Source of the DNA: Cytophagaceae bacterium
GTDB taxonomy: Bacteria; Bacteroidota; Bacteroidia; Flavobacteriales; Flavobacteriaceae
Assembly (NCBI GenBank): GCA_002712765.1
Contig: PAUP01000010.1
Location: forward strand, 1-35,280
Direction: 5' to 3'
DNA: 35,280 nt
Made by a program: the position numbers and the translations under genes. Below are positions 2,511 through 35,009 of the stretch, piece by piece. The notes beneath the pieces are model-generated. The model worked only from the letters and a program-made list of their open reading frames with translations, ran no database searches and was not told the origin of the DNA. The number at the start of each line of letters is the position of its first letter. The first letter of the stretch is position 1.

Positions 2511-2631
2511 ATTTGCTCAGACATTCTTAAGTAAATCATAGCTAATCTCTTGAATAGCAATACCGAAGGATTTGCCTTACTGTAAAAGCTGGTGGGTATA
2601 TTGTATCTTTATATTTCAACTCGATAATAGA

Positions 2632-5163
2632 ATGGCCATGAACTCAAAAAAGATTATCATACTTGGCTTTGCCCTTGTCTTAGGTGGGCTACTGTTTTAT
2701 GCAGGATTAGACACTGCCACTACAAATGACAAACCCTCTTCTCACCCGCAAAACAAGGAAAAACTTCCCAACGATTATATGTTTATGCAGCGGGCTTATC
2801 CTACAGGTCAAATAAAATCTGGAGCTTATGCCGTAGCCGCCAAATGGAAGAAGGCACTAAGCAGTCAAAATAAAAATGCAGACGCTGTTTGGGAGTTTAC
2901 GGGTCCCTTAAATACTGGTGGTCGTATTACAGATTTGGAAGTGAGCGCAATCGCTGGCAATCCCATTTTTGTAGGAGCGGCTTCTGGAGGGATATTTAAA
3001 TCTGAAGATGGGGGGGCTACTTGGACTCCGATTTTTGATGAACAACCCATGCTTTCTATTGGAGATATTGCCCTTGCGCCAAGTGATCAAAATATACTTT
3101 ATGTAGGTACTGGTGAAGTAAATGCAGGAGGCGGTTCATTGGCCTATGATGGAGATGGCGTTTATCGCAGTAATGATGGAGGATTGACCTGGCAATCTAA
3201 AGGCCTTACTGAGGTTGGAAGTATCGGAAAAGTTTTGATAGATCAGAACAATCCCGATATAGTCTACGTAGGGGCTATGGGGCCATTGTTTAGAAATGAC
3301 ACCAATAGAGGTGTTTATAAAAGTACAGACGGAGGTGACAGCTGGACACAATCTTTATTTATATCTGATAAAACGGGTATCATCGATATGGCGATAGATC
3401 CGGCCAATGCAGATATTGTATATGCTGTTGCCTGGGAAAGAGAGCGTACCCCAGAAAACAGAAGCTATGGTGGGCCTACCTCGGGTATCTACAAATCAAC
3501 AGATGGAGGTGCCACCTGGAACGAATTGACAAATGGACTACCTACAGCGGGTAATTTAAAAGGGCGTATTAGCATTGATATAGCGGTTTCTAATCCTGAT
3601 GTATTATATGCTTCTTATGCCGATGCCTCTGGAAATATTCAAGGGATCTATAAAACCACCGATGCTGGTACAACTTGGGCCACAGTAAGCTCGGCAGGTT
3701 TAACAAATGTGGGCTTTCACTGGTGGTTTGGTGGCTTATTTATCAATCCTGAAAATGAAAATGAAGTCTATCACGTTGGTTTTGATATGGCCAAGACCAC
3801 CGATGGTGGTGCAAGCTGGCAATCTACTTTTACTAATGTACACGTAGATCAACACGCTCTGGCCTTTCATCCTGACGATGCTAGTGTGGTTTTTCTAGGA
3901 AATGATGGCGGTTTGTATACCAGCTCAAATGCTGGGGCAACTAGTACTAAAGATCTCAATCTTCCAATTACACAATTTTATCGATTCTATGCCGACCCTT
4001 CTAATCCAGACCGCTTATTAGGAGGGACTCAAGATAACAATACCATTTTGACCACTACAGCAGGACTTTCTGATTGGAATCCGATTTTTGGAGGAGATGG
4101 TTTTCAGCCTTTGGTAGACAAAGACGATAGTAATATTGTATATGCTTTATCACAAAGAGGTAATTTGGGCAAGTCCATAAATGGAGGAGCTAGTTTTTCA
4201 AGCGCGCTTAGCGGTGTCAATCCAAGCGACCGAAACAACTGGGATACCCCTATAGCTTTTGATCCTCAAGATAATTCGATAGTGTATTATGGCACCAATA
4301 GACTCTACAGATCTACAGATCAAGCTGCGATTTGGACTGCCATCAGTCCAGATTTGACCAGTGGGCCAAGTACAGGAAATCTTACCTTTGGTACCTTAAC
4401 AAGCATCGATGTTTCTCCTTTAGATAGCGCTGTGATCTATGTAGGTACAGACGATGGCAATGTGTGGTCTTCTGTAGATGGAGGAAGCAGCTATACCAAT
4501 ATTAGCGCTGGGCTCCCCGATCGTTGGGTTACGCGTGTTCAAGCATCGCCCAATGCTCCTGATGAGGTTTTTGTGACCTTCTCAGGCTATCGTTTTGGTG
4601 AAGATGACGGCCATGTATTTATGAGTACCGATCAAGGTGCTAGCTGGACTGATTTGTCTGGAGGTATCCCTGACATTCCAGTTAACGATATTGAGATTGA
4701 CGGCTTTGATAATTTATATATCGCTACAGATATTGGGGTTTTGGCCTCTTCCGATATGGGAGCAAGCTGGCAAGCCTTTGGACAAAATATGCCTTCTGTG
4801 GTTGTGACAGATTTACACATCGATACCAATACCCAAACACTCTATGCCGCTACTTATGGCCGTTCTAGCTATAAGACCGATATAAGTTCAAATCCCTTAT
4901 CGGTTAATGACTTTAGTCAATCTATGGTTGATATGCGTTTATATCCCAACCCAGCTACTACACAGTTTAGCATTAGTTTGGCTCAAAATAGTGGCAAGTT
5001 GGCAATAGTGTCTATTTACAATCAATTGGGGCAGTTGCAGCAGCAGTTTCAAATGAACACCCTAGAACAAACGATATCGCTTGACGGATATGCTAGTGGG
5101 ATGTATATTGTACAACTTCAAATGGGTAGTCATACGCTTTCGCGAAAGCTTTTAAAGAAATAG
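2632..5163 (+). CDS. Secreted Asp-box (BNR/sortilin-like) propeller protein with T9SS sorting domain
   Basis: Predicted 843 residues from ATG 2632 (ATG 2638 is equally possible); the frame extends to a TTG at 2572 but only these ATGs place the hydrophobic signal segment (KKIIILGFALVLGGLLFYAG) at the N-terminus. About eleven Asp-box-like motifs of the form S-x-D-G-G-x-T/S-W are spread through the protein (for example STDGGATW, TTDGGASW, STDQGASW), as in VPS10/sortilin and sialidase-type beta-propellers. The last 85 or so residues, from about MRLYPNPATTQFSIS to LSRKLLKK, match a type IX secretion C-terminal sorting domain. Likely exported by T9SS and attached to or released from the surface. 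Asp-boxes are structural, so enzymatic function cannot be assigned. It lies between tonB and folC, and its stop is three bases before the proposed folC start. Confidence 0.85.
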   Translation: MAMNSKKIIILGFALVLGGLLFYAGLDTATTNDKPSSHPQNKEKLPNDYMFMQRAYPTGQIKSGAYAVAAKWKKALSSQNKNADAVWEFTGPLNTGGRITDLEVSAIAGNPIFVGAASGGIFKSEDGGATWTPIFDEQPMLSIGDIALAPSDQNILYVGTGEVNAGGGSLAYDGDGVYRSNDGGLTWQSKGLTEVGSIGKVLIDQNNPDIVYVGAMGPLFRNDTNRGVYKSTDGGDSWTQSLFISDKTGIIDMAIDPANADIVYAVAWERERTPENRSYGGPTSGIYKSTDGGATWNELTNGLPTAGNLKGRISIDIAVSNPDVLYASYADASGNIQGIYKTTDAGTTWATVSSAGLTNVGFHWWFGGLFINPENENEVYHVGFDMAKTTDGGASWQSTFTNVHVDQHALAFHPDDASVVFLGNDGGLYTSSNAGATSTKDLNLPITQFYRFYADPSNPDRLLGGTQDNNTILTTTAGLSDWNPIFGGDGFQPLVDKDDSNIVYALSQRGNLGKSINGGASFSSALSGVNPSDRNNWDTPIAFDPQDNSIVYYGTNRLYRSTDQAAIWTAISPDLTSGPSTGNLTFGTLTSIDVSPLDSAVIYVGTDDGNVWSSVDGGSSYTNISAGLPDRWVTRVQASPNAPDEVFVTFSGYRFGEDDGHVFMSTDQGASWTDLSGGIPDIPVNDIEIDGFDNLYIATDIGVLASSDMGASWQAFGQNMPSVVVTDLHIDTNTQTLYAATYGRSSYKTDISSNPLSVNDFSQSMVDMRLYPNPATTQFSISLAQNSGKLAIVSIYNQLGQLQQQFQMNTLEQTISLDGYASGMYIVQLQMGSHTLSRKLLKK
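5136..5149. repeat. Palindrome GCTTTCGCGAAAGC, copy 1
   Basis: Perfect 14-bp palindrome inside the last codons of the secreted propeller gene, read as Leu-Ser-Arg-Lys in the T9SS tail. It is one of seven copies in this window. Confidence 0.9.
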
Positions 5164-5166
5164 GTT

Positions 5167-6384
5167 ATTACATATCAACAAACACTTACTTGGTTATTTG
5201 AGCAATTACCCATGTACCAGCGGCAAGGGGCAAGGGCTTATAAGGTCAATCTGGACAATATTGAATTGCTCATGGATTATCTGGAACATCCCGAAAAGCA
5301 ATTTAAAAGCGTACATATTGCCGGGACTAATGGAAAAGGATCGACCAGTCACATGCTCGCCTCGGTCATGCAAGAGGCTGGTTATAACATAGGGCTGTAT
5401 ACCTCTCCGCATCTCAAAGATTTCAGAGAACGAATTAGAATCAACGGCGATCTCGCCTCCAAACAATTTGTGATGGGTTTTGTCAAAAAGCACAAGGCTT
5501 TTTTTGAAAAGCATCAACTTTCCTTTTTTGAAATGACGGTAGGGATGGCGTTTAGTTATTTTGCTCAAAAAAAGGTAGATCTCGCCATAGTAGAAGTAGG
5601 ATTGGGAGGTCGCCTAGATGCCACCAATATTTTGACCCCTGTCTTGTCTATCATAACTAACATTGGTCTAGATCACACCGAGTTTTTAGGGAATACTTTA
5701 GCCGCAATCGCCACCGAAAAGGCTGGTATAATAAAACCAGAGGTACCTGTGGTTATTGGCGAGTATCAGCCAGAAACGGTCACTGTTTTTGAAACGCTTT
5801 CGCGAAAGCAAAAGGCTCCCCTACACAAAGCGTATAACTTTGACTTGATGCCTATGAACTCAGATCTCAAAGGAGATTACCAGCAATTGAACAAACGTAC
5901 GGTACAAGTAGCCATATCGGTGTTACAAGGTTTAGGGTATGCCGTTGGGATACAACATATCGCCATGGGATTAAACAAGGTGACCAAAAATACAGGGCTC
6001 CTTGGGCGCTGGCAGATCATTCAGGAAAAGCCTTTACTTATTGCAGATACTGCTCATAACAAAGAAGGATTACAACTCGTAATGGATCAAATCGCCAATA
6101 CGGCATTTTCAAAGCTGCATCTTGTATTTGGGGTGGTCAAAGAGAAAGACCTTAGCAGCATCCTACCCCTATTACCCACTTATGCCTCCTATTATTTTTG
6201 CGCTCCAGATGTGCCCAGAGCAATGGATGCTCAGCATTTAATGCAACAAGCCCAAAGTTATCACTTGAAAGGAGAAACATATCCCTCTGTAAAAGATGCC
6301 TTAACAGCTGCTCAAAAAGCTGCTAGTGAAACAGATATGATTTTTGTAGGAGGAAGCACTTTTGTAGTAGCAGAAATAATTTAA
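5167..6384 (+). CDS. folC: Bifunctional folylpolyglutamate / dihydrofolate synthase, probable ATT start
   Basis: Mur-ligase-family enzyme that adds glutamate to folates (and to dihydropteroate) using ATP. The P-loop is GTNGKGST, followed by the signature TSPHLKDFRERIRING, an NIGLDHTEFLG segment and a DTAHNKEG motif in the C-terminal domain. The first ATG (5212) gives 390 residues but starts at the internal MYQRQG. The frame is open upstream to the preceding gene's stop at 5161 and encodes ITYQQTLTWLFEQLP, which matches the FolC N-terminus as I recall it in relatives (Met-Thr-Tyr...). No ATG, GTG, TTG or CTG that would include all of it exists; ATT 5167, one base different from ATG, sits exactly at the expected start and would give 405 residues. 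Function is very confident; the start is inferred. The gene carries a palindrome copy at 5796-5809. Confidence 0.9.
   Translation: MTYQQTLTWLFEQLPMYQRQGARAYKVNLDNIELLMDYLEHPEKQFKSVHIAGTNGKGSTSHMLASVMQEAGYNIGLYTSPHLKDFRERIRINGDLASKQFVMGFVKKHKAFFEKHQLSFFEMTVGMAFSYFAQKKVDLAIVEVGLGGRLDATNILTPVLSIITNIGLDHTEFLGNTLAAIATEKAGIIKPEVPVVIGEYQPETVTVFETLSRKQKAPLHKAYNFDLMPMNSDLKGDYQQLNKRTVQVAISVLQGLGYAVGIQHIAMGLNKVTKNTGLLGRWQIIQEKPLLIADTAHNKEGLQLVMDQIANTAFSKLHLVFGVVKEKDLSSILPLLPTYASYYFCAPDVPRAMDAQHLMQQAQSYHLKGETYPSVKDALTAAQKAASETDMIFVGGSTFVVAEII
5796..5809. repeat. Palindrome GCTTTCGCGAAAGC, copy 2
   Basis: Perfect copy inside folC, read as Leu-Ser-Arg-Lys in the segment between the ATPase domain and the C-terminal domain. 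Confidence 0.9.
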
Positions 6385-6468: not shown

Positions 6469-6543
6469 GGGCGCTTAGCTCAGTTGGTTCAGAGCACTTG
6501 GTTTACACCCAAGGGGTCAGGGGTTCGAATCCCTTAGCGCCCA
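6469..6543 (+). tRNA. tRNA-Val (anticodon TAC)
   Basis: Full cloverleaf: acceptor stem GGGCGCT (6469-6475) pairs with AGCGCCC (6536-6542), with A as discriminator. The D arm contains AGCTCAGTTGGTTCAGAGC. The anticodon arm is CTTGG-TTTACAC-CCAAG, giving anticodon TAC. The T arm contains GGTTCGAATCC. The CCA end is not encoded. A rho-independent terminator follows 12 bases later. Confidence 0.96.
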
Positions 6544-6554
6544 CATCAAGCAGC

Positions 6555-11726: not shown

Positions 11727-12446
11727 ATGCAATTAGAAATTTGTGCGCACTCCTTTAAAAGTGCTCTAGCTGCCCAGCAGTCAGGGGCCCATCGTATTGA
11801 GCTGTGCAGTGAGCTCAGTCTCGGAGGGATTACTCCCAGTCATGGTTTGATAGAAAAGGTGTGTGGCGAGCTTCAAATACCTGTTCATGTACTCATTAGA
11901 CCACGCAGCGGTGATTTTAGATATCATGCAGATGAGATGGCGGTGATGCTTCAGGATATTGCTTTCGCGAAAGCGCAAGGCGCAGCAGGAATTGTCTCGG
12001 GAGTGCTCGACAGTAATTTTCAAATTGATAAGACCCAAACAGCCCGATTAATAGCCGCAAGTAAGGGGCTTGAGTTTACTTTTCACCGCGCCTTTGATTG
12101 GACCCCTCAGCCTTTAGAGAGTATAAAAACCCTTCTGGAATTGGGCGTGCATCGCCTGTTGAGTTCTGGCCAGCAACCTACCGCCTTACAAGGCTTAGCC
12201 TGTTTAAAGCAATGCCTTGACCTAGCTCAGGGACACATGAGTATCATGCCTGGAGGAGGGGTTAGGCCTGTGATGATTCAAGATTTTGTCGAAGCTGGTT
12301 TTACCGATATTCATGCCTCGGCAAGTACAAGCCACCCAGGAGCAAAACACCCATTACCCATGCACGATTTTACCTATGTAAGCGCTGGGCTTCAAACAGA
12401 ATCGGACCCAGAGATCATTGCTCAATTTTTGGAAGCACTGCAATAA
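11727..12446 (+). CDS. cutC: CutC family protein (copper homeostasis protein CutC)
   Basis: Predicted 239-residue TIM-barrel protein of normal CutC length. Family motifs visible: LEICAHSFKSALAAQQSGAH near the N-terminus, RIELCSELSLGGITPS, IPVHVLIRPRSGDF, FHRAFDW and SIMPGGGVRP. CutC was named from an E. coli copper phenotype, but its biochemical role is unsettled. Here it is divergent from a mannosidase-glycosylasparaginase operon, suggesting a sugar-related role. The gene contains the palindrome at 11961-11974, read as AFAKA within the helix QDIAFAKAQGA without disturbing the alignment to the family. A terminator follows the stop directly. Confidence 0.9.
   Translation: MQLEICAHSFKSALAAQQSGAHRIELCSELSLGGITPSHGLIEKVCGELQIPVHVLIRPRSGDFRYHADEMAVMLQDIAFAKAQGAAGIVSGVLDSNFQIDKTQTARLIAASKGLEFTFHRAFDWTPQPLESIKTLLELGVHRLLSSGQQPTALQGLACLKQCLDLAQGHMSIMPGGGVRPVMIQDFVEAGFTDIHASASTSHPGAKHPLPMHDFTYVSAGLQTESDPEIIAQFLEALQ
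11961..11974. repeat. Palindrome GCTTTCGCGAAAGC, copy 3
   Basis: Perfect copy inside cutC, read as Ala-Phe-Ala-Lys-Ala. Confidence 0.9.
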
Positions 12447-16871: not shown

Positions 16872-18017
16872 ATGGACATCGATTATTCCCGTAGAATTTT
16901 TGGCTTGGATCTCATGAGGGCTATAGCCATTCTTGGTGTACTAGGCTCTCATATTCTTTGGATTTTTCCAGAGGCCAATAGTGGATGGCTTGTGTATATC
17001 TTACAATTTGGTGGGGTGATGGGTGTTGAGCTTTTTTTTGTTCTTAGTGGCTTTTTGATAGGTCGCATACTCTTACGCCATTTTGTAAATCCACAATTTC
17101 ACAAGGGTCATTTTAACTATTTTCTAGTGAGAAGATGGTTTAGAACATTGCCCAATTATTATGCAGTCTTATTACTCAATATCCTTCTTGTAACTGCGAT
17201 AGGGCGTGAGTTGCCAGATACGATTGCGCGTTATTTTGGTTTTTTGCAAAATTTCTTCTCTGGGATGGATATATTCTTTACAGAATCCTGGAGCCTACCT
17301 ATAGAAGAGTTTGCTTATATCATTGGTCCTGTACTATTGTTGCTTGCTGTTAGCGCTTTCGCGAAAGCAAAAAGAGAAACACTCTTCTTGGTAGTAACCC
17401 TTGTTGTCATACTTTTTTTTATTACTACAAAAATTATATACACAACAGGACTCACTGAGATGAGTTTACAGCATTGGAATATAGAGCTTAAAGCTGTGGT
17501 CTGGTATCGCATAGATGCGATTTATTATGGCGTATTGGCAGGCTATATATCAATGATTTATACCAAGCTATGGAAAAAATATGCAGTATTTTGTCTGGTC
17601 TTGGGTATTGGTTTGTTTTTTCTTGTTCAAATAGTAATGACCCTCAAACAATGGACACCAGAAAGTAATCCTTGGTTTTGGTATGTCGCTTATTTGCCGC
17701 TAATGTCTATGATTTATAGTCTTTTTTTGCCAGCCTTGAGTCAATGGAAAACGCAACCTACGTTTTTAGGTAAAACCATTACGATCATTAGTCTAATATC
17801 CTATGCTATTTATCTTTTGCACTATGGGATCATCTTACAAACCTTGCGTTGGATATGGCCTATAGAAACATTGACCACATCTACAAAGGCAATCTATGTT
17901 GTAGTGTATCTCGTCTTGGTATTTGGGCTCTCTTATTTGTGGTATCGTTATTACGAAAAACCCATGATGGATATTAGAGATAAACCCTATATTAAAAGTC
18001 GTTTTAGCAGGCCATGA
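16872..18017 (+). CDS. Membrane acyltransferase (acyltransferase 3 / OafA-like)
   Basis: Predicted 381-residue polytopic protein with about ten membrane segments. The N-terminus RRIFGLDLMRAIAILGVLGSH contains the family R-x10-H pattern, followed by GVELFFVLSGFLIGRIL and SWSLPIEEFAYIIGP. This family transfers acyl groups (often acetyl) to cell-surface sugars, lipids or peptides in the inner membrane. The substrate is unknown. It probably shares a transcript with the receptor upstream (28-base gap). The palindrome at 17355-17368 encodes SAFAKAK at the end of a membrane segment. Confidence 0.85.
   Translation: MDIDYSRRIFGLDLMRAIAILGVLGSHILWIFPEANSGWLVYILQFGGVMGVELFFVLSGFLIGRILLRHFVNPQFHKGHFNYFLVRRWFRTLPNYYAVLLLNILLVTAIGRELPDTIARYFGFLQNFFSGMDIFFTESWSLPIEEFAYIIGPVLLLLAVSAFAKAKRETLFLVVTLVVILFFITTKIIYTTGLTEMSLQHWNIELKAVVWYRIDAIYYGVLAGYISMIYTKLWKKYAVFCLVLGIGLFFLVQIVMTLKQWTPESNPWFWYVAYLPLMSMIYSLFLPALSQWKTQPTFLGKTITIISLISYAIYLLHYGIILQTLRWIWPIETLTTSTKAIYVVVYLVLVFGLSYLWYRYYEKPMMDIRDKPYIKSRFSRP
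17355..17368. repeat. Palindrome GCTTTCGCGAAAGC, copy 4
   Basis: Perfect copy inside the acyltransferase gene, read as Ala-Phe-Ala-Lys-Ala at a membrane-loop boundary. Confidence 0.9.
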
Positions 18018-23099: not shown

Positions 23100-23113
23100 G
23101 CTTTCGCGAAAGC
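23100..23113. repeat. Palindrome GCTTTCGCGAAAGC, copy 5 (intergenic)
   Basis: The only copy outside a gene, in the 92-base divergent gap between rbfA and mce. Here the palindrome extends to 16 bp (CGCTTTCGCGAAAGCG, 23099-23114). Confidence 0.9.
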
Positions 23114-24767: not shown

Positions 24768-25841
24768 ATGAAGAAAGAAGAAAAAATAAGAGTGGGTATT
24801 TCTGTGGGTGATCCTAACGGAATAGGAATGGAAGTCATGCTAAAAACGCTTAATGAAGCTATGGTGTTAGACTTTTGTACGCCCATCATTTTTGGAGCGG
24901 TAAAGCCCGTTTCTTTTGTTAAGAAAAATCTCGGGTTGTCACTCAATTTACATGGGGTAGACGCTTTCGCGAAAGTGATTGATGGCAAGATCAATGTTTT
25001 AAATATGACCAAGACACCTCCAGTGATTGCCTTTGGTGAGGAGACTCAGGAAGCAGGGGCCTTTGCAATAGCTTCTTTTGCAGCGGCGGTCAAAGCCTTG
25101 AAGGCAGGACAGATAGATGTTTTGGTAACAGCGCCCATAAGTAAAACCAATATTCAGAGTGAGGATTTTTCCTTTCCAGGGCATACCGATTATTTGGCGC
25201 AAGAACTAGAAGGAGAAGCGATGATGTTAATGGTTACCGATACCTTAAAAGTGGGCTTATTGACAGATCATGTGGCAGTCAAAGACATCGCTCAAACCAT
25301 CACCCCAGCCTTAATAACACAAAAAGTCGAAACCTTATTTACCGCTCTGCAAAGAGATTTTGGGATTAGAAAACCAAAAATCGCACTCTTGGGTATCAAT
25401 CCGCACGTAGGCGATAACGGGGTTATTGGAGATGAGGATGACAAAGTGCTTATTCCTACGCTAGAAAAAATTAGAGCTACGGGTAAGATCGTATATGGTC
25501 CCTATGCTGCCGACAGTTTTTTTGGCACTGGAAATTATAAGAATTTTGATGCGATTCTCGCTGCTTATCACGATCAAGGCTTGATTCCTTTTAAAACCTT
25601 ATCTTTTGGACAAGGGGTAAATTATACCGCGGGCCTTTCAAAAATTCGAACGAGTCCCGATCACGGTACTGCTTTTGAAATAGCTGGAAAAGGCACTGCC
25701 GATGAAAGTTCTTTTAGAGAGGCGTTATTTACAGCCATACAGATTTACAAAAAGAGGCAAGAGTATGATGGCCTTACTGCCAATGTGCTCAAGGTGAGTC
25801 CTAAAAAGACGGGTGGACGCGGAAGGCATTCTCGTAGTTAG
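24768..25841 (+). CDS. pdxA: 4-hydroxythreonine-4-phosphate dehydrogenase
   Basis: Predicted 357 residues, Zn-dependent NAD(P) enzyme of pyridoxal 5'-phosphate synthesis. Motifs: VGISVGDPNGIGMEVMLKTL at the N-terminus, metal-binding His in SFPGHTDYLAQEL and in AAYHDQGLIPFK, ALLGINPHVGDNGVIGDED, and RTSPDHGTAFEIAGKG. A TACTTTTG box (24728-24735) lies 32 bases before the ATG. An imperfect palindrome copy at 24963-24976 encodes DAFAKV. A weak hairpin (GCTACG 25842-25847 with CGTAGC 25855-25860) lies just after the stop. Confidence 0.95.
   Translation: MKKEEKIRVGISVGDPNGIGMEVMLKTLNEAMVLDFCTPIIFGAVKPVSFVKKNLGLSLNLHGVDAFAKVIDGKINVLNMTKTPPVIAFGEETQEAGAFAIASFAAAVKALKAGQIDVLVTAPISKTNIQSEDFSFPGHTDYLAQELEGEAMMLMVTDTLKVGLLTDHVAVKDIAQTITPALITQKVETLFTALQRDFGIRKPKIALLGINPHVGDNGVIGDEDDKVLIPTLEKIRATGKIVYGPYAADSFFGTGNYKNFDAILAAYHDQGLIPFKTLSFGQGVNYTAGLSKIRTSPDHGTAFEIAGKGTADESSFREALFTAIQIYKKRQEYDGLTANVLKVSPKKTGGRGRHSRS
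24963..24976. repeat. Palindrome copy 6 (12-bp core CTTTCGCGAAAG)
   Basis: Inside pdxA, GCTTTCGCGAAAGT: one end base departs from the 14-bp consensus, the 12-bp core is intact. It is read as Ala-Phe-Ala-Lys-Val. Confidence 0.85.
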
Positions 25842-32957: not shown

Positions 32958-35009
32958 ATGAAGAAGGATATCATTATCGAAGGGTTTAAAAATTTGATCA
33001 CCGCCAAAGCGATGACCGAGCTGTATGAGGAACAATTTAAAATTGTATCCAAATATGTGCATGCCACCAGTCGAGGGCATGAAGTAATACAAACAGCTAT
33101 AGGTATGCAATTGCGTCCTCAGGATTATGCCTTCCCGTATTATAGGGATGACGCGATGTTGCTGGCCATAGGGATGAAACCTTATGATTTGATGTTACAG
33201 GTTATGGCCAAGAAAGACGATCCTTTTTCTGGAGGTCGGACCTATTATTCACATCCTAGCCTCAAAGATGACGACAAACCAAAGATACCCCATCAGAGTT
33301 CGGCTACGGGGATGCAAACCATTCCTGCCACAGGTGTAGCGATGGGTTTTTGGTATAAGGAGGCAGAAGGTATAACACAAGACAATACCAACGAATTGCC
33401 TTTGGTAGTATGTTCTCTTGGAGATGCCTCTGTGACAGAAGGTGAGATCGCAGAAGCCTTTCAGATGGCAGCCCTCAAGCAGTTACCTATATTGTATTTG
33501 GTACAGGATAATGGCTGGGATATTTCAGCCAATGCTGCCGAGACCAGAGCTCAAAATGCTTTTGAGTATGCCAAAGGTTTTCACGGTCTAGAAGCCGTCT
33601 CTATAGACGGGACTGATTTTCAGGAGAGCTATCAAACCTTAGAGGGCGTGATAGAAACGATACGAACCGAAAGAAGACCTTTTTTAGTACATGCCAAAGT
33701 ACCGCTGTTAAATCATCATACCTCTGGGGTGCGTATGGAGTGGTACAGAGATGATTTGGATGAGGCTCGCAGTAGGGATCCGTATCCAAAGATGAAGCAA
33801 CTCCTACTCGATCAAGGTGTGACTCAGGCTGATATTGAGCAGATGGAAGCTTTCGCGAAAGCGGAAGTAGCCGAAGCATTTGAAAAAGCGCAACAAGCAC
33901 AAGACCCGCTACCTGAAGATTTGTTTACTCACGACTTTGCGCCCACCCCAATTACCGAAGAAAAAGGGGAGCGCCACCCTGAAAATGGAGAGCAGGTGGT
34001 GATGGTTGATTGTGCCTTATTTGCTATAGAAGAATTGATGCGTAAACATCCAGAGTGTTTGTTATACGGGCAAGACGTAGGGGGGCGTTTGGGAGGAGTA
34101 TTTAGAGAGGCCGCGACCTTGGCGCAAAAGTTTGGCGATAATAGGGTTTTTAATACCCCTATACAAGAAGCCTTTATCGTAGGGTCTACCGTGGGGATGA
34201 GTGCTGCAGGTTTAAAGCCGATTGTTGAGGTACAGTTTGCAGACTATATCTGGCCTGGTCTTAATCAATTATTTACCGAGGTAAGTCGTAGTTGCTATCT
34301 CAGTAATGGCAAATGGCCCGTGTCTATGATTTTGCGCGTGCCTATAGGTGCCTATGGCTCAGGGGGTCCTTATCACTCGTCTTCGGTAGAGAGTGTTGTG
34401 ACCAATATCAGAGGCTTAAAGATAGCCTACCCCTCTAATGGTGCCGATTTAAAGGGGCTGCTAAAAGCCGCCTATTACGATCCAAATCCTGTGGTCATTT
34501 TTGAGCATAAGGGCCTGTATTGGAGCAAAGTAAAAGGTACTCAAGGGGCTACTTCTATTATGCCCGATGAAGATTATGTATTGCCATTTGGAAAAGCATG
34601 GGTATTGCAAGAGATTTGGAAGCAGGAAGAACAGGAAACAGTGACCATCATTACCTATGGTATGGGTGTACATTGGGCGATGAATGCGAGTAAGGAGTTA
34701 GGTATGGAAGATCGTATAGAAGTTGTCGATTTGCGCACCTTACACCCCATAGATTATGATACAATTTTTGCTTCGGTAAAAAAATGTGGTAAGTGTCTCG
34801 TAGTGACCGAAGAACCTTCAGATAATGGTTTTAGTCGCAGCTTGCAGGGTCGTATACAGGAAGAATGTTTTAGAGAGCTCGATGCTCCTGTAATGCTCAT
34901 CGGTTCTGAAAATATGCCCGCAATTCCACTAAATAGTACTTTGGAAGAAACGATGATTCCAAGCACGAAAAAGGTGAAAGAAAAAATAGAATTGTTGATG
35001 TCTTTCTAA
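32958..35009 (+). CDS. 2-oxoacid dehydrogenase E1, fused alpha and beta subunits
   Basis: Predicted 683 residues. The alpha half (about 1-300) has the thiamine diphosphate motif LGDASVTEGE...QDNGWDIS and the conserved YYRDDAMLLAIGMKPYDLML. The beta half (about 345-683) has VDCALFAIEELMRKHPECLL, GGVFREAATLAQKFG and FADYIWPGLNQLFTEV. Fused E1 of this length occurs in Bacteroidota as I recall it. With the E2 and aminotransferase upstream it should decarboxylate branched 2-oxoacids to acyl-CoAs. The palindrome at 33849-33862 encodes EAFAKAE in the linker between the two halves. It is the last gene of the operon; no terminator is seen before the tandem repeats. Confidence 0.9.
   Translation: MKKDIIIEGFKNLITAKAMTELYEEQFKIVSKYVHATSRGHEVIQTAIGMQLRPQDYAFPYYRDDAMLLAIGMKPYDLMLQVMAKKDDPFSGGRTYYSHPSLKDDDKPKIPHQSSATGMQTIPATGVAMGFWYKEAEGITQDNTNELPLVVCSLGDASVTEGEIAEAFQMAALKQLPILYLVQDNGWDISANAAETRAQNAFEYAKGFHGLEAVSIDGTDFQESYQTLEGVIETIRTERRPFLVHAKVPLLNHHTSGVRMEWYRDDLDEARSRDPYPKMKQLLLDQGVTQADIEQMEAFAKAEVAEAFEKAQQAQDPLPEDLFTHDFAPTPITEEKGERHPENGEQVVMVDCALFAIEELMRKHPECLLYGQDVGGRLGGVFREAATLAQKFGDNRVFNTPIQEAFIVGSTVGMSAAGLKPIVEVQFADYIWPGLNQLFTEVSRSCYLSNGKWPVSMILRVPIGAYGSGGPYHSSSVESVVTNIRGLKIAYPSNGADLKGLLKAAYYDPNPVVIFEHKGLYWSKVKGTQGATSIMPDEDYVLPFGKAWVLQEIWKQEEQETVTIITYGMGVHWAMNASKELGMEDRIEVVDLRTLHPIDYDTIFASVKKCGKCLVVTEEPSDNGFSRSLQGRIQEECFRELDAPVMLIGSENMPAIPLNSTLEETMIPSTKKVKEKIELLMSF
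33849..33862. repeat. Palindrome GCTTTCGCGAAAGC, copy 7
   Basis: Perfect copy inside the fused E1 gene, read as Ala-Phe-Ala-Lys-Ala in the interdomain linker. Confidence 0.9.

What the first reader, a model, noticed from the sequence alone, without database searches (positions are those of the whole stretch)
5161..5214. folC appears to start at ATT
The reading frame of folC is open from the stop codon of the upstream gene (5161-5163) and encodes ITYQQTLTWLFEQLP before the first ATG (5212). This is the FolC N-terminus as I recall it in Flavobacteria, where the gene starts Met-Thr-Tyr. No ATG, GTG, TTG or CTG precedes this conserved segment; ATT at 5167 is exactly at the expected position, one base from ATG. 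ATT starts are very rare (infC is the known example). Alternatives: use of ATG 5212 with loss of 15 conserved residues, or translational reinitiation after the upstream stop three bases away.
Basis: partly seen in the sequence, partly recalled or inferred. Interest (0 to 1): 0.72.

Follow-up and report, generated by a model that had tools for sequence, protein, structure and literature searches.

The report
Folate gene starts without an AUG
In a marine bacterium and many of its relatives, the gene for a central folate enzyme appears to begin with AUU, AUC or AUA instead of a normal start codon, and the weak start looks like an old, kept feature rather than an error.

Summary
folC (5167-6384) has no in-frame ATG, GTG, TTG or CTG between the upstream stop (5161-5163) and its conserved N-terminus; ATT 5167 sits on Met1 of relatives. 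In four genera searched as a whole, 51 of 53 folC genes have ATT, ATC or ATA there (Dokdonia 14 of 16). AUH without ATG/GTG/TTG alternative occurs in 15 genera of the family. ATG 5212 is disfavoured: codons 2-15 evolve as coding sequence (pN/pS 0.27; 5' flank 1.04), its context is at the 1st percentile of Dokdonia starts against the 62nd for ATT 5167, and Met of two crystallised homologues aligns with the AUH codon. The third base is C in 40 of 63 sequences, above all 77 fourfold sites compared; this holds in two genera and is weak in the rest. infC of the family begins at AUA. Best reading: a genuine weak AUH start, probably limiting FolC and discriminated by IF3, as described for infC and sigR. 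Initiation and IF3 control are not shown by experiment.

The parts
2572..5163 (+). upstream gene: sortilin/BNR-type protein with a T9SS C-terminal sorting domain, stop TAG 5161-5163
   Evidence: not the upstream neighbour in all AUH relatives
5154..5156 (+). AAA at -13 to -11 relative to ATT 5167; A-12 and A-13 stimulate initiation in F. johnsoniae reporters
5166..5166 (+). T at -1, the commonest -1 base of Dokdonia ATG starts
5167..5169 (+). ATT, proposed folC start codon (AUH start)
5170..5211 (+). codons 2-15, conserved N-terminal segment under purifying selection in relatives
5212..5214 (+). ATG, codon 16, internal Met; disfavoured as start
5167..6384 (+). folC (dihydrofolate synthase / folylpolyglutamate synthase), 405 codons plus stop
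   Evidence: TIGR01499 351.7 bits, cut-off 162.65; single folC match in the held genome

Best explanation
folC translation starts at AUU 5167, read by the initiator fMet-tRNA despite the third-base mismatch, giving a 405-residue enzyme that begins Met-Thr-Tyr. Shown by comparison: the start position, its spread through a group of Flavobacteriaceae, coding conservation of codons 2-15, and an initiation context (A at -13 to -11, pyrimidine at -1, A at +4) placed correctly for AUU and not for ATG 5212. Inferred: the weak codon is kept by selection, the evidence being an excess of AUC at the site. Most likely it limits FolC output and puts folC, like infC, under IF3 start-codon discrimination.
For: AUH in 51 of 53 folC genes of four genera searched as a whole; in all, 65 of the 72 rows I drew into the group, 59 of them with no in-frame ATG/GTG/TTG upstream. 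pN/pS 0.27 for codons 2-15 against 1.04 for the 5' flank, 29 rows. Context score at AUH above that at codon 16 in 34 of 34 rows; offset 0 has the highest mean of offsets -30 to +48. A at -13, -12, -11 in 27, 28, 26 of 31 rows, all three in 20 of 31 against 26 and 31 of 175 ATG genes in two Dokdonia genomes; A-12/A-13 are reporter-tested in F. johnsoniae. Profile position 1 aligns with Met, residue 1 of 1fgs and residue 13 of 1o5z. Third base C in 40 of 63 rows; 0 of 77 fourfold, 0 of 14 Ile and 0 of 43 twofold sites reach this; by genus g28 0 of 102, Dokdonia 1 of 93. infC has no canonical start in 16 of 16 Dokdonia genomes with a match.
Against: No proteomic, ribosome-profiling or reporter data for this gene. 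The NCBIfam FolC model starts near residue 29 and scores the version from ATG 5212 equally (351.9 against 351.7 bits). AUH contexts are not clearly better than ordinary ATG contexts over all 34 rows (p 0.07; Dokdonia alone p 0.0014). AUH is the best in-frame offset in only 12 of 31 rows. Six of 65 AUH rows have an in-frame TTG upstream and three more a CTG. Support for one clade is modest (SH-aLRT 82) and lost in the larger tree. Outside g28 and Dokdonia the C excess is weak (6 of 75 fourfold sites reach it), and the rarity of AUG is not beyond drift. ATG-starting genomes that might belong inside the group were sampled only in part. The window's own genome gave no infC match. IF3 control is untested.
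Confidence: 0.85

Rival explanations
1. Translation starts at ATG 5212 (codon 16) and the upstream 15 codons are not translated.
For: First canonical start; Met (28) or Val (1) at this residue in 29 AUH rows; the FolC family model does not need the first 28 residues.
Against: Codons 2-15 evolve like coding sequence; residue 16 is also Met in nearly all ATG-starting relatives read; GTG in L009; context at the 1st percentile; Met of 1fgs and 1o5z aligns to the AUH codon.
Confidence: 0.04
2. AUH is used only because the ribosome reinitiates after the upstream stop (translational coupling), so the start codon hardly matters.
For: In the window the upstream stop ends 3 nt before ATT; gaps are 3-18 nt where the T9SS gene is the neighbour.
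Against: Other AUH genes follow a different gene at 11-137 nt, such as L002 at 106 and L309 at 137; the third base is biased to C.
Confidence: 0.12
3. The AUH codon is a tolerated weak start for a low-demand enzyme, kept by drift without any regulatory role.
For: ATG occurs inside the group at least twice (L007/L008; L302/L303/L323); the share of G at the third base is not unusually low (5 of 77 fourfold sites, or 23 of 74 without g28, have as little); outside two genera the C excess is weak. That little FolC is needed is general knowledge.
Against: C excess over the fourfold sites of the same rows in g28 (0 of 102) and Dokdonia (1 of 93); the codon changes among T, C and A at least 17 times on the tree.
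Confidence: 0.3
4. A base error in this assembly turned ATG into ATT.
For: The held genome is 78% complete in 107 contigs.
Against: ATC, ATT or ATA in single-contig genomes of other Dokdonia and in other genera.
Confidence: 0.01

Closest known systems
infC (IF3) with AUU/AUC start
   Same: Conserved AUH start without canonical alternative; in these Flavobacteriaceae infC itself starts at AUA. AUU in E. coli and AUC in Streptomyces per PMC5472188 (passages).
   Different: IF3 regulates its own gene; FolC is a folate enzyme, so any control would be in trans. infC AUA occurs also in folC-ATG species (L330, L348), folC AUH only in part of the family.
sigR of Streptomyces (GTC start, IF3-repressed)
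   Same: Lineage-conserved non-canonical start in a gene that is no initiation factor; GTC in 32 of 34 species, GTT in 2 (PMC5472188, passages).
   Different: sigR has an extensive Shine-Dalgarno-type site, a different codon class and experimental proof; folC AUH is seen in 15 genera and has no experiment.
pcnB of E. coli (AUU start)
   Same: AUU start in a gene that is no initiation factor (recalled, no call).
   Different: Different enzyme and lineage.

Membership tests
FolC, TIGR01499 | score above the curated cut-off | tested here: met
   351.7 bits against 162.65; Mur ligase middle and C-terminal domains
Genes with a conserved AUH start (infC/pcnB kind) | no in-frame ATG/GTG/TTG between the upstream stop and the conserved N-terminus | tested here: met
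   window and 58 other rows of 65 AUH rows; three of the 59 have a CTG
Genes with a conserved AUH start (infC/pcnB kind) | AUH aligned with Met1 of homologues and coding conservation right after it | tested here: met
Genes with a conserved AUH start (infC/pcnB kind) | initiation at AUH shown by peptide, profiling or reporter | not testable with these tools
   no expression data
IF3-regulated start codons (infC, sigR) | translation falls with IF3 and rises in IF3 fidelity mutants | not testable with these tools
   needs a bench test
IF3-regulated start codons (infC, sigR) | non-canonical codon maintained by selection | tested here: inconclusive
   C excess in two genera, weak elsewhere; AUG rarity not beyond drift

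The most novel reading that the evidence does not exclude
The AUH start makes folC a readout of initiation stringency: FolC feeds the folate pool from which formyl-THF, and so formyl-Met-tRNA, is made, and the weak start lets initiation conditions (IF3, formylated initiator tRNA) set the FolC level, a feedback loop between one-carbon metabolism and translation initiation.
Probability: 0.1. Interest if true: 0.85.

Novelty: new member of a known kind. Interest (0 to 1): 0.6.

Why it matters
Well-characterised bacterial genes with AUU, AUC or AUA starts are very few. Here a folate gene, single-copy in the window's genome, has one in 15 genera of a phylum said to lack Shine-Dalgarno sites (abstract of PMC6847099), with a partial sign of selection for AUC. 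It is a natural case for testing how such ribosomes accept near-cognate starts and whether IF3 can regulate metabolism. A gene finder limited to ATG, GTG and TTG would truncate this protein, as the ORF list does.

Tried and rejected
Upstream RNA structure: of 200 shuffles of 5127-5226, 194 fold at least as well, so no stem or riboswitch-like element was pursued; I take it as an open start region (one sequence tested). Extended codon-anticodon pairing (U-1 with A37, recalled) looked special against ATG folC genes, but T-1 is the ordinary consensus of Dokdonia ATG starts (0.56), so I do not claim it as folC-specific. A first ortholog control gave 49 candidates of 264, mostly ordinary starts a few codons in and apparent antisense ORFs; the filtered version keeps 238 pairs and flags 33, judged by eye. 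On re-reading them I added the HAD-like gene. Searches for a report of a folC non-AUG start (wider) listed no paper that treats it by title or abstract; the library holds open-licence papers only, and of the papers listed in all searches I opened four: PMC5472188, PMC5622118 and PMC6847099 (passages, the last also abstract and one section) and PMC11497404 (outline with abstract).

Sampling: the 140 family start regions (139 genomes, G163 gave two) are best-scoring rows, which matched 391 of 397 genomes and listed only part; the last eight listed rows were not fetched. They are biased towards Dokdonia relatives, so the share of AUH in the family is not estimated. The 30 genomes were picked as AUH or similar-looking; some ATG rows (for example L172, L216) were not added, so the 65 of 72 is no unbiased share. 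Rows dropped before counts: L022-L025 (same genes as genus rows); L004-L006 as near copies (31-row count); rows not of 405 residues; L126, L154, L214 (in-frame TTG or ATG upstream) in the 32-row count. In one search, 7 of 46 infC loci were not parsed and 3 of the 39 parsed show an in-frame GTG inside the gene.

Full report
OBSERVATION. The window reads TAG (5161-5163) GTT ATT ACA TAT CAA CAA ... with the first in-frame ATG at 5212. The protein is FolC (TIGR01499), with one match in the held genome. The genus is named Dokdonia from record titles of loci (L022-L025) whose start regions agree with genus members.

RELATIVES. In 18 genomes of the genus, 16 have a true folC (G008 has no match and G012 only a weak Mur-ligase-like one). 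At the position of ATT 5167 they have ATC 11, ATT 3, ATG 2. Across the family I read 140 further starts from the best-scoring rows. With the genus rows the 156 starts are ATG 110, ATC 23, ATT 9, GTG 5, ATA 3 and six others; 32 of the 35 AUH rows have no in-frame ATG/GTG/TTG upstream. These 32 lie in 15 genera by the tool's group codes. Three further genera searched as a whole gave AUH in 26 of 26, 7 of 7 and 4 of 4 folC genes (28, 9 and 5 genomes). In the group of 72 rows as I drew it: ATC 45, ATT 14, ATA 6, ATG 5, AAT 1, TCC 1; 59 AUH rows have no in-frame ATG/GTG/TTG, three of these have a CTG, and six AUH rows have a TTG. In 76 folC loci from public genomes outside Dokdonia (L026-L101, mostly Bacteroidales, six with Flavobacteriaceae or Winogradskyella titles; the best 80 of 218 were kept) none has AUH at this position; 66 have ATG, GTG or TTG there and 10 another codon, several of them with ATG one or two codons up.

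HISTORY. On a FolC tree of 49 rows AUH needs five class changes; the group of 41 rows that holds every AUH gene has SH-aLRT 82. The simplest reading is one origin, with ATG regained in L007/L008 and in L302/L303/L323, and other escapes in L320 (TTG four codons up) and L322 (GTG one codon up). In the 77-row tree the deep branches are unresolved, so one origin is likely and not shown.

WHY THE START IS THERE. (i) Codons 2-15 have pN/pS 0.27, like codons 2-405 (0.34), while the 5' flank read in frame gives 1.04 (29 rows). (ii) In 14 FolC sequences from Dokdonia to Prevotellaceae and other Bacteroidales, Tyr3 and Leu10 are invariant, and the eight non-Dokdonia ones begin with Met. With that profile, position 1 aligns to Met, residue 1 of 1fgs and residue 13 of 1o5z (Lactobacillus and Thermotoga are recalled as the sources). 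(iii) A weight matrix from 175 ATG starts of one Dokdonia genome, held against 175 starts of another, places ATT 5167 at the 62nd percentile and ATG 5212 at the 1st; in 34 of 34 AUH genes the AUH context beats codon 16. Against this, AUH is the best in-frame offset in only 12 of 31 rows, although its mean is the highest of all offsets, and over all 34 rows AUH contexts do not clearly exceed ordinary ATG contexts (p 0.07). (iv) A at -13, -12 and -11 occurs in 27, 28 and 26 of 31 AUH genes, AAA in 20 of 31, and AAA in 26 and 31 of 175 ordinary genes in two genomes. Reporter tests in F. johnsoniae name A-12 and A-13 as most critical of that run (PMC6847099; abstract, passages and one section read).

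RARITY. Of 238 orthologous pairs between 400-kb stretches of two Dokdonia genomes, three genes lack a canonical start at their conserved N-terminus by my reading of 33 flagged pairs: folC, for which the stretch was chosen; a DUF2064 gene beginning ATC; and a HAD-like gene with ATA codons at the expected start, frameshifted in G005. A published reconstruction found 1 AUG-to-AUU switch among 61,358 ancestral AUG starts (PMC5622118, passages). infC is another AUH gene: no canonical start in the 16 Dokdonia genomes with a match (of 18; the window's own genome has none). Of 30 other genomes 23 were parsed and all 23 carry the same Ile-Ala-Ile start region, with AUA-GCA where the codons were printed, three with a GTG further inside; they include folC-ATG species (L330, L348).

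SELECTION ON THE CODON. In 63 rows with AUN the third base is C 40, T 13, G 5, A 5. In the same rows none of 77 conserved fourfold sites (mean C 0.19), 14 Ile sites (mean ATC 0.19) or 43 twofold sites (mean C 0.25) is as C-rich. These sites share the tree, so relatedness alone does not explain it. Taken apart: genus g28 alone 21 of 25 C, 0 of 102 fourfold sites as high; Dokdonia 8 of 13, 1 of 93; without g28 19 of 38, 1 of 74; without both 11 of 25, 6 of 75. So the preference for AUC is strong in two genera and weak in the rest. The rarity of AUG is not beyond drift (5 of 77 sites have as little G; 23 of 74 without g28). The codon changes among T, C and A at least 17 times.

MECHANISM. Shown by comparison: position, spread, context. 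Inferred: initiator tRNA decodes AUH as fMet; the A-rich, weakly folded leader supports a weak codon; [quoted passage not shown] The link from FolC through formyl-THF to formyl-Met-tRNA is general knowledge and makes a feedback loop conceivable; no data here support it. Coupling to the upstream gene cannot be the general cause: that neighbour is either the T9SS sortilin-like gene (3-18 nt away) or another one, often with a TonB-like C-terminus by my reading (11-137 nt in AUH rows).

VERDICT. A real, conserved AUH start, not yet proven by experiment; a new member of a small known kind, unusual in being a metabolic gene and in being spread over 15 genera.

Noticed in passing
5136-5149, 5796-5809, 11961-11974, 17355-17368, 23100-23113, 33849-33862 (and 24963-24976 with one mismatch): The palindrome GCTTTCGCGAAAGC recurs six times exactly and once with one mismatch, inside folC and its upstream neighbour among others; shuffles expect 0.00. 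Function unknown to me.
   Followed up: no
L102-L117 and the parsed loci of L328-L355: infC of these Flavobacteriaceae starts at AUA (AUA-GCA-AUH) with no canonical start before it, in folC-AUH and folC-ATG species alike.
   Followed up: partly
L358-L364 (G005:C1:636215 and relatives): A DUF2064 gene starts at ATC two codons after a stop in seven Dokdonia genomes; other copies show ATA, GTG or ATG nearby.
   Followed up: partly
G007 stretch and G005 stretch (HAD-like gene): A HAD-like gene (TIAVDFDGTIVENAYP) has ATA codons but no canonical start before the conserved motif in G007; in G005 the reading frame shifts a little further on.
   Followed up: partly
L084 upstream of folC: An uncultured Bacteroidales folC reads TAA AAA TTA AAA ATT ACG before Asn-Tyr, without a canonical start; possibly an independent non-AUG start.
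   Followed up: no
window 6469-6544: tRNA-Val (TAC) follows folC.
   Followed up: no
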